Source: Lentzea tibetensis
Lineage (GTDB): Bacteria > Actinomycetota > Actinomycetes > Mycobacteriales > Pseudonocardiaceae
DNA: 64,000 nucleotides
Assembly (NCBI RefSeq): GCF_007845675.1
Contig: NZ_VOBR01000022.1
Coordinates: 62,001-126,000 of the forward strand
Direction of reading: 5' to 3'
Shown: positions 1-3,901 of the stretch, one piece after another
How positions within the stretch are numbered: the stretch's first letter is position 1
How the letters are laid out: every line of letters starts with the position of its first letter
Program-made: the position numbers and the translations under genes
The notes under the pieces: model-generated
Told to the model about the DNA's origin: nothing
What the model saw: the letters and a program-made list of their open reading frames with translations, nothing else
Databases searched by the model: none

Positions 1-248
1 GCGACCTCGGCCAGGTGCTTGACCCGCTGCGCGTCCACCTCGTCCGCCCCGCCGAGCGACAGCGACACGCCGTGGGGGAGCACCGGCACGCCGCGTTCCC
101 TCAGCAGGACAACGGACTCCGGGATGTGTCCGATGTGGATGTTCTCCGCGACGACCTCGACGAAGTCCACACCGGGCAGCCGCTCGACGGTGATGTCGAT
201 CTCCGAGCGCCAGCCGATGCCGACGCCCAGCCTGGGCAGCTCGCTCAT
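1..248 (-). CDS. DUF692 / MNIO family protein, N-terminal part (runs off left edge)
   Basis: Only the first ~82 residues are in the window; the frame is open to base 1. The start is the ATG at 248, with a GGGGGA ribosome site just upstream. The translation opens [12 protein letters not shown], then [12 protein letters not shown], then [11 protein letters not shown]. This is the N-terminal signature of DUF692 (UPF0276), the TIM-barrel family now called multinuclear non-heme iron-dependent oxidases (MbnB, TglH). The His of HGV and the acidic AEN motif fall where metal ligands sit in that family. Known members oxidise cysteines in small ribosomal peptides, often with a partner protein that could lie left of the window. 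It follows four TIGR04222-type genes with Cys-rich tails, 33 nt after the last stop, so it is probably the last-translated gene seen of one operon. Confidence 0.88.
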
Positions 249-281
249 CGGAGTCCCCCTTCGCCGCTGGCCGTGATCATG

Positions 282-1112
282 TCAGTCGCTGGAACTGCTG
301 CTGCTACAGCTGCTGCTGCTCGACGAGCAACTGCTGCTGCTGCAGCTGCTGGAGCTCGACGACGAGCAGCTGCTCGACGAACAGGAGCTCGAGCTCGACG
401 AGCACGAGCTGGCCGACGAGCAGCTGCTGCACGAACTGCCGCAGCTGGTCCCGCAGCTGCCGACGCCGGTGTCCTCGCGGACCCGCTTCTTGATCCTGCG
501 CACCGGGAGCATGCCGACCACGCTCGCGGTGAGGCCGAACATCGCGTAGACGGGCTGGTTGAAGATCTTGCCGCGCAGCCCGTACACGGCGACGGCCGTG
601 ACCCGGTCGAGCGCCGCGGCTCGTTTGACCACGCGCTTGCCCGCCCCGGTCAGGTGTCCCTTGCGACGGAGGAACACCACGCCCAGCACGGCGACCGCGA
701 CGGCGACGAGCAGGTAGGGGAGGAAGTTGTCCGCACCGAGGCCGATGACGAAGGTGAGGATGGCGATGATCCACGCCCACGGGTAGAGCGCGCCCTTGCG
801 CGGCTTGCCGATCAGGCGGCGCGCCAGCAGGTGCTGGCGCAGCGACTCGGTGGCCGGGCTGTAGGCGGTCGTCTTGGTGATCACGTCGAGGTTCTGCGGG
901 CTGATGCGCAGGGACGCGAGCATCTGCGCCTCCAGCGGCGTGGCGCCGTTGCCCGGCGTCTCGACCGCGCTGACGAGGCCCTGGCGGGAGATCCGGATCA
1001 GGCCGGCGTCGAGCAGCCGCGCCAGCGCGACCTCGCTCGCCCTGCCGGGTCCGCTGACCAGGAAGCCCAGTTCTTCCGGCGTGACCGTCGACGCCTGTGT
1101 CGAAGTCGTCAT
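282..1112 (-). CDS. TIGR04222-type membrane protein with Cys/Ser-only tail
   Basis: The start is the ATG at 1112. It overlaps the previous stop as TGATG and follows a GGAGGAGG ribosome site. The N-terminal ~45 residues carry the family signature (EELGFLVSGPGR, then ARLLDAGLIRISRQG). Two membrane spans lie near residues 145-185 (WAWIIAILTFVIGLG and YLLVAVAVAVLGVVF). A conserved GKRVV region follows. The last ~58 residues are almost only Ser and Cys: ten cysteines separated by 2-7 Ser/Gly/Thr and ending in Asp. Function is unknown. The tail looks like a substrate for post-translational modification or metal binding. The MNIO gene immediately downstream makes cysteine modification a reasonable inference. 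Confidence 0.85.
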   Translation of the reverse strand: MTTSTQASTVTPEELGFLVSGPGRASEVALARLLDAGLIRISRQGLVSAVETPGNGATPLEAQMLASLRISPQNLDVITKTTAYSPATESLRQHLLARRLIGKPRKGALYPWAWIIAILTFVIGLGADNFLPYLLVAVAVAVLGVVFLRRKGHLTGAGKRVVKRAAALDRVTAVAVYGLRGKIFNQPVYAMFGLTASVVGMLPVRRIKKRVREDTGVGSCGTSCGSSCSSCSSASSCSSSSSSCSSSSCSSSSSSSCSSSSCSSSSSSCSSSSSSD

Positions 1113-1870
1113 CAGTCTCCTCCTCCGCCGCCACAACCTCCGCCACCGCAGCTGCTACCGCCGCCGCAGCTACTACCACCCGATGAGCAACTGCTGCTGC
1201 CGCAACCACTCCCGCAGCTGCTGCCGCCGTCGTCGTTCGACTTCTTCTTGGTGCTGCGCGTGGGCAGCTGCCGGACGACATCCTCCGGTAGTTCGAAGAA
1301 CGCGGCGACCGGACGCCGGTTGATCCTGCCACGCAGACCGTGCACCGCGACGGCCTCGACCCGGCCGCGCGGCACGGCCTTCCTGACGATCCGCCTGCCC
1401 GCGGCCGTCAGCGGCTTCCTGGGCCGGAAGAACTGGGCCAGCACGACCAGTCCGGCCGCCGTCGCGATGAGCGGCACCATGTCGTTCGCCCCGATCACGA
1501 AGCCCACGCCGACGGTGATGATCGCGACCGTCCACAGCAGGGTGTTCAGCTTGCCGCCGCGCGTGCGGTTCACCAGCCCGCGGCCGACGAGGTGCTCACG
1601 CAGCGCGTCGGCGGCGGGACTGAACGCGACCGCCTTGGCGACGGTGCTGAGGTGGCCGTGGTGGCCGCTCATCACCTGTGCCTGCAACGGGGTCGGGTTC
1701 CAGTGCCCGCCGATGACGGTGATGACTCCCTGGCGGGAGATCCGGATGCGGCCGGCGTCGAGCAGGCCCGCGATCGCCGTCTCGGTGGCGCGGCCGGGGC
1801 CGCCGACCAGGTAGCCGAGCTCCTCGGGCGTCACGGCGCCCTTGGTCGCTTTCGTTGGGGAAGTCGTCAT
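1112..1870 (-). CDS. TIGR04222-type membrane protein with Gly/Cys/Ser tail
   Basis: I chose the ATG at 1870 because GAGGTGG lies 5 nt upstream. An upstream in-frame ATG at 1903 lacks this. The N-terminal domain reads VTPEELGYLVGGPGRATETA, then LLDAGRIRISRQG, the TIGR04222 pattern. Two membrane spans occur around LLWTVAIITVGVGFVIGAN and IATAAGLVVLAQFF. After a basic KKKSNDD stretch the C-terminal ~38 residues are Gly, Cys and Ser with seven cysteines. The pattern is glycine-rich near the end, unlike the serine-rich tail of the next gene. The stop overlaps the next start (TGATG), so the two are translationally coupled. A 104-nt gap separates it from the preceding operon gene. Confidence 0.85.
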   Translation of the reverse strand: MTTSPTKATKGAVTPEELGYLVGGPGRATETAIAGLLDAGRIRISRQGVITVIGGHWNPTPLQAQVMSGHHGHLSTVAKAVAFSPAADALREHLVGRGLVNRTRGGKLNTLLWTVAIITVGVGFVIGANDMVPLIATAAGLVVLAQFFRPRKPLTAAGRRIVRKAVPRGRVEAVAVHGLRGRINRRPVAAFFELPEDVVRQLPTRSTKKKSNDDGGSSCGSGCGSSSCSSGGSSCGGGSSCGGGGCGGGGGD

Positions 1871-1974
1871 CGCCACCTCACTGAGCCACTGCTCGCCAGT
1901 CACCCCGCCGGTGAACCAACCGTTTACTCGGTGATGCGCGATGCGTCGTTACGCGGAATGGTCCCGCGTCGCGG

Positions 1975-2856
1975 TCAGGCGTCGAAAATGTCTCCGATGT
2001 CGCTGAAGTCCGCATCGCCCAGCCAACTGCTCGCCAGCCACCCGCCGGCGAACCACCCGGCGGCCCAGACGACCCGCCGCGGTGGCGGATCGTCCTGGGG
2101 TGTGGCGCTCCTGCGGGGCCGCGGGAGCTGACTCTCAGACGCTTCGGTGGTGTCGATCCGTTCCACGGTCTGGCCGTCGAATGTGGCGGTCTGGACGACT
2201 TTTCTCGGTTTCCCCGGCTCGGGTGGCGCTGGGCGGCGCAGGCCGTAGCGTGCGGTGAGCTCGGCTGGTTCCACCGGCGCGAGTCCGATGGTGGCCGCCC
2301 ACAGCGCGTAGCTGCCCGCGCGCGTCAGCACCGGCGGTGGCGTGGCCAGCAGCCCGACGATCGCCGCCGCGGTCAGCAGGCCCGCGCCGACCGTCCACGG
2401 TGTCCAGTCGCCGTGCACGAAGAGCAGTGCGCCCAGCAGGAACAGCAGGAGCACCGCCGCGATCGCGCGCCGCAGCCGTCGTACTGGCGTGACCAGAAAG
2501 CCCTGGGTGAGCAGTGCGTGTCCGAGCCGTCGCACGGCGTCGCTGTCCGCGGTGGTCCGCACGACGTCGTCGACGCGGTGGCCGGCCAGCGAGAGCACGA
2601 CGGTCCCGATCGGACTGTCCGCCGGCTCGGCGGGTTCGACGGCGGCCAGCCGGTCACCGGCGAACTTCGCCCTGTTCTCCGACACGAGTGCCGCGACGGC
2701 GACCTCGGCCGCACGGGCCGGGCCGCCGCCGAGGTAGCCGACTTCCTCGTGGGACAACGGTTCCGCGCGCTCGGCGCCGCGGACCTCCTTGACGCGCAGG
2801 CCGAGCAGCACCGCCGCGAGCAGCGCGACCGCGTACGCGGCGACGAACAGGGTCAA
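1975..2856 (-). CDS. TIGR04222-type membrane protein lacking a Cys tail
   Basis: The likely start is the TTG at 2856, which overlaps the previous stop as TTGA after a GGTGGGGG stretch. An ATG at 2904 would overlap the upstream gene by 52 nt through its Gly/Cys tail. An N-terminal membrane span (LFVAAYAVALLAAVLLGL) precedes the TIGR04222 core (LSHEEVGYLGGGPARAAEVA). Two more hydrophobic segments lie mid-protein (AAVLLLFLLGALLFVHG and AGLLTAAAIVGLLA). Unlike its three siblings it has no Cys/Gly/Ser tail. It ends in a Trp/Gly-rich and acidic segment (WFAGGWLASSW, then DADFSDIGDIFDA). It may be a non-substrate scaffold of the same complex, or a divergent paralogue. Confidence 0.75.
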   Translation of the reverse strand: MTLFVAAYAVALLAAVLLGLRVKEVRGAERAEPLSHEEVGYLGGGPARAAEVAVAALVSENRAKFAGDRLAAVEPAEPADSPIGTVVLSLAGHRVDDVVRTTADSDAVRRLGHALLTQGFLVTPVRRLRRAIAAVLLLFLLGALLFVHGDWTPWTVGAGLLTAAAIVGLLATPPPVLTRAGSYALWAATIGLAPVEPAELTARYGLRRPAPPEPGKPRKVVQTATFDGQTVERIDTTEASESQLPRPRRSATPQDDPPPRRVVWAAGWFAGGWLASSWLGDADFSDIGDIFDA

Positions 2857-3755
2857 CCCCCACCGCCGCCGCAGCCGCCGCCGCAACCCCCACCGCCGCA
2901 ACAACTGCTGCTACCGCCGCCGCTGGAGCACGAGGAGGTGCTGGCGCCGCAGCTGCCGCCGACGTAGCCGGTCGTTCCGCCCGCCGGTGCGGCCAGCAGC
3001 GAGCTGCGCACCGTGAGGTCCGGGTAGGCGGCGAGGCCGCCCAGGGCGACCAGCCCGGCGGCCCCCGCGTACTCGACGGACGCCGGGCTGGTCACACCCC
3101 CTGTGGTGCCGCTGGCACGAGCTTCCTGGAGCACACGGTCCCCCTTGGACGTGCGCATGAGCTTGCCGCGGCGGGTGACGATGAAGATCAGCAACCCGGT
3201 GACGACCAGCTGGAGCGTCAGCCACCCGACGGGCGCGTCGATCGTGATTCCGTTGAACCAGCGGGCGATGCCGACCGCGAGCAGCACCCACAGCGGCAGC
3301 GCACCCCTGCGCAGCCGCGAACGAACCTCGTCGCGGTCGATCACCAGTCCCGCCTCGACCAGCCGCGTGCCGATCGACGTCACGGCGTGGTGCTCGGCGA
3401 CCTTCGGGACGAGCAGGTAGATGGTGCGGTTGGTGTACCGCTGCGCGTCTTCGACGACGGCCTGGTCGACCGGGTTCACCACCGGAACCCCGGTCACCTG
3501 CACCGCGCCACGCCGCGACGTGCGCAGTGCCTCAGCGGCGAGCAGCCGGGCGAGCGACGCCTCGACCACGCGCCGCGGTCCTCCGGCCAGATAAGCCAGT
3601 TCGTCGAGATCCAGGGTGCGCACCGGCTGGCTGTTTCCCGAGCGGGCGCGCACCCGGACGATGATCGCGAACACCACGAGCGCGGCGAGCGCGATCCAGT
3701 AGAGCTCGAGGAACTCCGGACCCGACAATCCCCAAGGACGCTCCACGTGGTCCAC
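2853..3755 (-). CDS. TIGR04222-type membrane protein with Cys/Gly tail, first of operon
   Basis: Starts at the GTG at 3755; a GTG at 3746 is an alternative. One N-terminal membrane span (LYWIALAALVVFAIIV) precedes the conserved core (LDLDELAYLAGGPRRVVEA, then ARLLAAEALRTSRRG). Two further spans follow (LPLWVLLAVGIARWF and LQLVVTGLLIFIV). The final ~36 residues are Gly/Ser/Cys-rich with seven cysteines, including a CC pair, and end in five glycines. Function unknown. It overlaps the next gene by 4 nt (TTGA). The three-span layout matches the next gene, while the last two family members in the operon lack the N-terminal span, so two sub-types alternate in one operon. Confidence 0.82.
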   Translation of the reverse strand: MDHVERPWGLSGPEFLELYWIALAALVVFAIIVRVRARSGNSQPVRTLDLDELAYLAGGPRRVVEASLARLLAAEALRTSRRGAVQVTGVPVVNPVDQAVVEDAQRYTNRTIYLLVPKVAEHHAVTSIGTRLVEAGLVIDRDEVRSRLRRGALPLWVLLAVGIARWFNGITIDAPVGWLTLQLVVTGLLIFIVTRRGKLMRTSKGDRVLQEARASGTTGGVTSPASVEYAGAAGLVALGGLAAYPDLTVRSSLLAAPAGGTTGYVGGSCGASTSSCSSGGGSSSCCGGGGCGGGCGGGGG

Positions 3756-3838
3756 CCCCTGACTGCCGTTGTGCGGTCAATGGTGTGGGGTGGACCACAG
3801 TGGGACAAGCGTTTTGAGGAAGCCTTAGGGTTGGCCGC

Positions 3839-3901
3839 TCAGCTCGACGCACCGCCGTCGCAGCCGCTGGATCCCTCGCCGTCCGTGCCCATGAACGTCA
3901 T
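3839..3901 (-). CDS. possible 20-residue Gly/Ser/Cys peptide upstream of TIGR04222 operon
   Basis: A 21-codon frame starts with ATG at 3901. GGGAGG lies 5 nt upstream, a strong ribosome site. The peptide begins MTFMGTDGEG and ends SSGCDGGASS, with one Cys in a Gly/Ser/Asp context. It lies 84 nt ahead of the first TIGR04222-type gene on the same strand. It could be a small peptide substrate of the neighbouring MNIO, a leader peptide, or chance. The good ribosome site and its position favour a real gene. Conservation upstream of homologous operons would decide. Confidence 0.42.
   Translation of the reverse strand: MTFMGTDGEGSSGCDGGASS

What the first reader, a model, noticed from the sequence alone, without database searches (positions are those of the whole stretch)
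1..3901. MNIO enzyme downstream of four TIGR04222 membrane proteins with Cys-rich tails
The sequence shows an operon of four paralogous membrane proteins, coupled by TTGA and TGATG overlaps except for one 104-nt gap between the second and third. Three have C-terminal tails of 36-58 residues made almost only of Cys, Ser and Gly (7, 7 and 10 cysteines). The next gene is the N-terminus of a DUF692/MNIO protein. Known MNIOs (MbnB, TglH) convert peptide cysteines to oxazolone/thioamide or other products. I infer that the tails are membrane-anchored substrates, perhaps forming a copper- or iron-handling surface. The no-Cys paralogue may be a scaffold. Two sub-types, with and without the N-terminal span, occur side by side.
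Basis: partly seen in the sequence, partly recalled or inferred. Interest (0 to 1): 0.88.

Follow-up and report, generated by a model that had tools for sequence, protein, structure and literature searches.

The report
Cysteine-tailed membrane proteins with MNIO enzyme
Four sister membrane proteins, three ending in cysteine-rich tails, sit beside an iron enzyme that probably remodels those cysteines; the pairing was already known, but here it proves to be a fixed unit with a partner protein, tails that probably face the cell interior, and a control site shared with an amino-acid importer.

Summary
Window 282-3746 (minus) encodes four TIGR04222 membrane proteins with 10, 6, 0 and 6 tail cysteines; next comes a full MNIO/DUF692 gene and, outside the window, a 115-aa partner gene. 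The association is published: Antoine et al. 2025 (PMC12452194) describe TIGR04222-MNIO clusters and model this partner type from Saccharothrix. So it is a member of a known kind. Added here: (1) the partner follows MNIO in 80 of 80 related loci and is fused to it in 10 of 10 loci of another family (f5, Streptomyces-like); (2) enzyme and membrane proteins are both present (31) or both absent (27) in 58 of 60 family genomes, at a site between msrB and hemQ; (3) tail cysteines are spaced far more evenly than shuffled tails, and 13 of 15 relatives without intact MNIO have at most one; (4) charge rules, paralogues lacking the first span, homology to DUF2207 and an AlphaFold model favour cytosolic tails, against the published 'periplasmic' reading; (5) an operator-like element precedes the operon and recurs before an amino-acid ABC transporter gene. 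No chemistry is shown. In 6 of 8 f5 loci the linked TIGR04222 protein lacks a Cys tail, so tail modification is not the whole story.

The parts
2853..3746 (-). T4: TIGR04222 membrane protein, long form (N-terminal span), tail with 6 Cys; first gene of the operon
   Evidence: TIGR04222 144.1 bits; reading and tail; AlphaFold model, made with the alternative start at 3755
1975..2856 (-). T3: TIGR04222 paralogue, long form, no Cys; Trp-rich acidic C-terminus like copies in Lentzea sp. NBRC 105346, Umezawaea beigongshangensis and Saccharothrix
   Evidence: 66.8 bits; zero Cys; related C-termini by reading
1112..1870 (-). T2: TIGR04222 paralogue, short form (no N-terminal span), tail with 6 Cys
   Evidence: 70.4 bits
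282..1112 (-). T1: TIGR04222 paralogue, short form, Ser-rich tail with 10 Cys
   Evidence: 75.2 bits
1..248 (-). MNIO (DUF692, PF05114) gene, N-terminal part; the whole gene is L006:9433-10248 (271 aa)
   Evidence: PF05114 284.4 bits for the whole protein
3813..3829 (-). operator-like element CCTAAGGCTTCCTCAAA upstream of T4
   Evidence: pattern search; of 42 occurrences of a relaxed form in the 77 loci from which it was drawn, 40 lie in the 260-nt upstream regions
3747..3798 (-). leader inverted repeat: arm 3787-3798 pairs with arm 3747-3758, which covers the likely ribosome-binding site of T4
   Evidence: arms read; 11-bp stem; fold

Best explanation
A three-part module. (a) Membrane proteins anchored by a two-helix hairpin, with or without a first span, carry a cytosolic winged-helix-like domain and a disordered Ser/Gly tail with regularly spaced cysteines. 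(b) A cytosolic MNIO enzyme works with (c) a small helical partner of the PME-type 2 / MbnC kind. Most likely mechanism: MNIO plus partner oxidise several tail cysteines, at the cytosolic face, to ligands of the bufferin type (thiooxazole or similar), giving a membrane-tethered array that stays attached and is not exported. Shown by computation: the gene set, its conservation, fusion of (b) and (c) in relatives, joint presence and absence, cysteine spacing. Inferred: modification of the tails, their cytosolic side, the kind of product. Binding of copper or another soft metal is only a guess from the enzyme's closest named families.
For: Partner next after MNIO in 80 of 80 loci; MNIO and partner in one open frame in 10 of 10 f5 loci. 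Each of 77 scorable operons has at least one protein with 2 or more tail Cys; 782 of 909 cysteines in 182 proteins lie in tails; distance mode is 6, CV 0.364 against 0.808 shuffled. Joint presence in 60 family genomes: 31 both, 27 neither, 1 and 1 (the 31 include G048, whose MNIO is in pieces). Without intact MNIO, 13 of 15 relatives have at most one Cys in the last 80 residues: G017 (profile 2-183) and G502 (1-225) have none, G048 has one while its congener G004 with intact MNIO has four. Five unlinked second copies in f3 genomes have 0 or 1. Topology: K+R around the N-span 0.38 before, 3.56 after (after exceeds before in 98.4% of 123); hairpin before/loop/after 3.70/0.62/3.98 (123 long) and 4.57/0.30/4.37 (30 short). 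AlphaFold pLDDT 81.5: the third hydrophobic stretch forms helices of 7 and 8 residues, too short to span; tail disordered. DUF2207_C is hit by 20 of 64 members at E up to 1, best 1.1e-5; DUF2207 proteins are predicted with an inside Gly/Ser-rich C-part (passage of PMC10457818). Closest named MNIO model is BufB, 203.9 bits.
Against: In 6 of the 8 f5 loci with a TIGR04222 hit the protein has no Cys tail, although MNIO and partner are present. In those f5 loci a conserved 71-aa protein with 6 Cys lies upstream in 7 of 10; it looks like a zinc ribbon to me but was not tested and could be another substrate. Some unlinked copies in family f1 genomes have Cys tails (both in L040, L041, L043, L044, one of two in L045, L047); those genomes do hold an MNIO elsewhere. 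Two of the 15 relatives without intact MNIO keep 2-3 C-terminal Cys (L155, L158). A hydrophobic stretch of spanning strength follows the hairpin in 44% of long forms and 3% of short ones, in L130 at mean hydropathy 2.46; if it spans, those tails would be outside, as PMC12452194 says. Foldseek gave no PDB match below E 0.001 for either model. I found no metal-related gene or site, but searched for none specifically.
Confidence: 0.6

Rival explanations
1. The tails are exposed outside the membrane and are modified as membrane-bound bufferin-like copper traps (close to the published proposal, which leaves the modification and role open).
For: Periplasmic tails are stated from TM topology and AlphaFold models in PMC12452194 (passages). 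In 44% of long forms a further hydrophobic stretch could span.
Against: Charge pattern in 123 long and 30 short forms; short paralogues with the same kind of tail lack the first span and, in 97%, the extra stretch; the T4 model breaks that stretch into two short helices.
Confidence: 0.25
2. The tails are not enzyme substrates: they are plain thiol arrays (metal or redox buffers), and MNIO acts on another substrate, with TIGR04222 as anchor or scaffold.
For: f5 loci keep MNIO and partner with a no-Cys-tail TIGR04222 protein in 6 of 8, and a conserved 71-aa protein with 6 Cys lies upstream in 7 of 10. A low-Cys paralogue sits in up to 28 of 77 operons. Some unlinked copies have Cys tails.
Against: No CxC and few CxxC distances (metallothionein-like spacing is recalled) and the even spacing; few tail Cys where MNIO is missing or broken.
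Confidence: 0.2
3. The tails are low-complexity sequence made by repeat slippage, with no function.
For: Short imperfect tandem repeats in the T1, T2 and T4 tails.
Against: Mixed Ser codon classes; regular spacing and shared ends (52 of 152 tails end GGGCGG); all 77 scorable operons keep a Cys tail.
Confidence: 0.05

Closest known systems
TIGR04222-MNIO-PME-type 2 clusters (Antoine et al. 2025, PMC12452194)
   Same: Same families and gene neighbourhood; their PME-type 2 model A is a 115-aa protein of Saccharothrix sp. NRRL B-16314, a strain among our loci (L069).
   Different: They place the tails in the periplasm, predict PME-type 2 genes in 'at least 10%' of TIGR04222 clusters and say many lack a partner gene; their 11 passages on fusion name no MNIO-partner fusion. 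Here the tails are inferred cytosolic, and the partner is found in 80 of 80 loci and fused in 10 of 10 f5 loci.
Bufferins (BufA/BufB/BufC)
   Same: BufB is the closest named MNIO model; several Cys per substrate.
   Different: No DUF2282 match in the four window proteins; no DUF2063 match of the partner; membrane hairpin in place of a Sec signal peptide; below BufB's 310-bit cut-off.
Methanobactin MbnB/MbnC
DUF2207 membrane proteins
   Same: Homologous C-terminal half: the own-genome L005 protein matches TIGR04222 at E 2.9e-9, below its cut-off, and DUF2207_C at 7.3e-27.
   Different: DUF2207 has an extra N-terminal domain; the L005 protein has no Cys tail.

Membership tests
MNIO / DUF692 (PF05114) | Full-length domain match above cut-off | tested here: met
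   284.4 bits against 25, profile 1-262 of 263
MNIO / DUF692 (PF05114) | Multi-iron centre and oxidative activity | not testable with these tools
   Many His/Asp/Glu/Asn columns are invariant among nine relatives; which of them bind iron was not tested
TIGR04222 | Match above the 43-bit cut-off | tested here: met
   All four, 66.8-144.1 bits
PME-type 2 partner | Gene follows MNIO and lacks the DUF2063 signature | tested here: met
   80 of 80 loci; own protein no Pfam match at E up to 1; of 8 members scanned only one DUF2063 hint, E 0.13
PME-type 2 partner | Fold related to NGO1945, TglI or MbnC | tested here: inconclusive
Bufferin system | Bufferin precursor signature (DUF2282) | tested here: not met
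   No such match among the four window proteins at E up to 1
Bufferin system | BufB equivalog cut-off | tested here: not met
   203.9 bits against 310
RiPP-type modified substrate | Modified cysteines in the mature tail | not testable with these tools
   Needs mass spectrometry

The most novel reading that the evidence does not exclude
A protein-modifying MNIO system that decorates the cytosolic face of the membrane with a permanent array of oxidised-cysteine ligands, made under the same response regulator as an amino-acid (glutamate-type) importer, so that its role is nutrient- or envelope-linked and not copper export or secretion.
Probability: 0.2. Interest if true: 0.8.

Novelty: new member of a known kind. 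Interest (0 to 1): 0.5.

Why it matters
The characterised MNIO substrates that I recall are small peptides. If MNIO modifies the tails of resident membrane proteins on their inner side, the family includes true protein-modifying enzymes. The constant partner gene, the fused form, the fixed site with natural losses and the shared operator-like element make this testable in ordinary soil actinomycetes.

Tried and rejected
Neighbour genes as functional clues: a gene cluster that reads as msrB lies upstream in 68 of 80 loci, and clusters that read as hemQ and hemY lie in the flanks of 46 and 38 loci (names by reading, for the own genome PF01641 and PF06778). Rejected as synteny: in 18 of 18 family genomes without MNIO that I tested, of 28 without MNIO, hemQ and msrB are convergent neighbours (79 to 4519 bp apart, 16 of 18 under 1.5 kb), so the module sits in, or was lost from, that site. 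What fills the gap in those genomes was not read.

The PDB sequence search with the partner profile found only two ribosomal-protein matches, E 0.33 and 0.35. Foldseek against PDB gave nothing below E 0.001 for T4 or the partner. Metal regulons were not searched. The paper on GluR-GluK (PMC5573080) is not held; what I say of it comes from passages of the review PMC9739842. Papers: PMC12452194 by outline, passages and the whole of section 18, supplements not seen; PMC10457818, PMC4991794, PMC9739842 and PMC3140484 by passages; all others only as search listings. That MNIO-partner fusions and cytosolic tails were not found in print rests on searches and those passages only.

Rows dropped: of 81 loci including the own one, four were not scorable for tails (L068, L109, L113 at contig ends; L127 without a TIGR04222 hit), leaving 77. 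153 of 182 proteins had a clear hairpin and entered the charge counts; the segment finder is a plain hydropathy window. Start codons were chosen by a simple rule; 14 of 77 first-gene starts lack the conserved start pattern and some are surely wrong. The 80 loci are the best 80 of 466 confirmed, so close relatives dominate. The operator pattern was drawn from the same upstream regions that one search counts; one search is the more independent test, though its genomes overlap. Genome families f1, f3, f5, f78 are unnamed; 'Streptomyces-like' for f5 is my inference.
Full report
What is there. The window begins inside an operon on the minus strand: T4, T3, T2, T1 (all TIGR04222), then MNIO, then a 115-aa gene that overlaps the MNIO stop (GTGA; read). 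The MNIO is whole in the genome (L006:9433-10248, 271 aa; PF05114 284.4 bits) and is the only PF05114 match of that genome. T1, T2 and T4 carry 10, 6 and 6 cysteines, all in C-terminal tails of 59, 38 and 35 residues; T3 has none. The nearest named locus is Lentzea sp. NBRC 105346 (MNIO 93% identical).

How fixed is the set. An MNIO profile fetched 80 named loci, the best 80 of 466 confirmed. A profile of the small gene hits next after MNIO in 80 of 80, at 93 bits or more. TIGR04222 lies upstream in 78 of 80 at some score; L068 starts at a contig end and L127 has none. In loci of other families the partner is also there: separate in 7 of 7 TIGR04222-type loci read (L128-L131, L137, L166, L167; weakest L131, 32 bits) and in the same open frame as MNIO in 10 of 10 f5 loci (L132-L136, L138-L142); it was not found in three MNIO loci without TIGR04222 (L143-L145). 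A fusion is good evidence that the two work together. In 60 family genomes TIGR04222 (over cut-off) and MNIO are both present in 31 (G048 with MNIO in pieces among them), both absent in 27, and single in one each. In 199 genomes of the order the counts are 72 both, 13 TIGR04222 only, 3 MNIO only, 111 neither (tallied by hand); 12 of the 13 match only the first half of the profile. In 296 phylum genomes: 14 both, 1 TIGR04222 only, 5 MNIO only, 276 neither (at most 9 candidates per genome were scored, so misses are likely).

The site. In 18 of 18 MNIO-less family genomes tested, hemQ and msrB face each other at 79-4519 bp; in the own genome they are 14.7 kb apart with the module between. So the module seems to be inherited or lost at one place, and the hem and msr neighbours say little about function.

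The tails. Of 182 TIGR04222 proteins from 77 operons, 152 have at least two tail cysteines (mean 5.1 among these). Of 909 cysteines, 782 lie in tails. The residue after a tail Cys is Gly 527 times and Ser 233 times. Cys-Cys distance has its mode at 6; 4.6% are 3 or less, against 37.6% in shuffled tails (lowest of 300 shuffles 33.5%); no CxC occurs. This fits separately treated residues better than close metal-thiolate clusters (inference). Relatives without intact MNIO: 14 MNIO-less genomes (G017 and 13 from the order) and G048. Of these 15, 13 have at most one Cys in the last 80 residues and two have 2-3 (L155, L158). The three (nearly) full-length ones: L146 (G017) has a Gly/Ser/Asp tail with no Cys; L160 (G502) has no Cys and hardly a tail; L032 (G048), whose MNIO lies in separate frames, has one, while its congener L009 (G004) has four. 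These are few cases, not a statistic. The counter-evidence is real: 6 of the 8 f5 loci with TIGR04222 hits have no Cys tail. Their upstream neighbour reads like the peptidyl-tRNA-hydrolase-type 'adjamnio-II' arrangement of PMC12452194 (by reading, not by a family search), and further upstream a 71-aa protein with 6 Cys is conserved in 7 of 10. Unlinked copies differ: 5 of 5 in f3 genomes lack Cys tails, while six of the nine unlinked loci of f1 genomes (L039-L047) hold at least one Cys-tailed protein.

Which side. Positive residues flank the N-terminal span on its inner side (0.38 before, 3.56 after) and both ends of the hairpin, not its loop. Short forms have no first span, so their N-terminal domain should stay inside, and the hairpin brings the tail back inside. 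The AlphaFold model of T4 (64-sequence alignment, pLDDT 81.5, pTM 0.73) has a first helix 12-38, a helix-helix-two-strand domain that I read as winged-helix-like, the hairpin 141-171/177-195, then two short helices in place of a further span, and a disordered tail. The own-genome DUF2207 protein L005 matches TIGR04222 at E 2.9e-9, below the cut-off, and both DUF2207 domains; DUF2207_C is hit by 20 of 64 family members at E up to 1. PMC10457818 describes DUF2207 proteins, by prediction, with an outside N-part and an inside Gly/Ser-rich C-part (passage; printed 'intercellular'). I therefore favour cytosolic tails, firmly for short forms and less so for long ones, 44% of which have another hydrophobic stretch. 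PMC12452194 says periplasm.

Control. The element CCTAARNNTNNNTMAA occurs upstream of the first gene in 40 of 77 loci; 40 of all 42 occurrences in 1.96 million strand-bases lie in these 20 kb (the pattern was drawn from them). A stricter form gives 22 hits in 60 family genomes (reversed-pattern control: 4): 12 lie upstream of TIGR04222 genes (compared by hand), 8 before an ABC transporter ATPase gene of the polar amino-acid type, 2 elsewhere. Of these 8 genes only that of L169 was run against families (GlnQ-like, below cut-off); the others are alike by reading. In three of four such loci read further (L169, L171, L181) a response regulator is divergent from the ABC gene, OmpR-type in L169 by Pfam. 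A review passage says GluK/R of S. coelicolor senses glutamate and regulates the adjacent gluABCD (PMC9739842). That the regulator here is GluR is inference. In 13 leaders, all Amycolatopsis, the ribosome-binding site lies in a 13-18 bp inverted repeat; 24 of 63 leaders have a stem of 9 bp or more (mean 8.7 against 6.8 shuffled).

Verdict. The kind of system is in print; the additions above are computational. The step from 'gene module' to 'modified tail' is the unproved one.

Noticed in passing
window 3813-3829; L169-L171, L174, L175, L181, L186, L187 near position 1500: Operator-like element shared by the TIGR04222-MNIO operon and the promoter of an amino-acid ABC transporter ATPase gene; a response regulator is divergent from that gene in three of four loci read.
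   Followed up: partly
window 3747-3798 and Amycolatopsis leaders (e.g. L118, L120, L124, L126): Inverted repeats of 11-18 bp that would hide the ribosome-binding site of the first gene; possible translational control.
   Followed up: partly
L132-L136, L138-L142: MNIO and its small partner are one open reading frame in f5 (Streptomyces-like) genomes; in 6 of the 8 with a TIGR04222 hit that protein has no Cys tail; a conserved 71-aa protein with 6 Cys lies upstream in 7 of 10.
   Followed up: partly
L032 (G048): The MNIO gene lies in several separate frames and the linked TIGR04222 tail has only one Cys. Sequence error and decay cannot be told apart here.
   Followed up: no
   Followed up: no
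L148-L159: Relatives that match only the first half of TIGR04222, in MNIO-less genomes of family f78; some end in Gly/Asp/Trp-rich tails.
   Followed up: no
L005:613-2232: DUF2207 protein in the own genome, homologous to TIGR04222 in its C-terminal half.
   Followed up: yes
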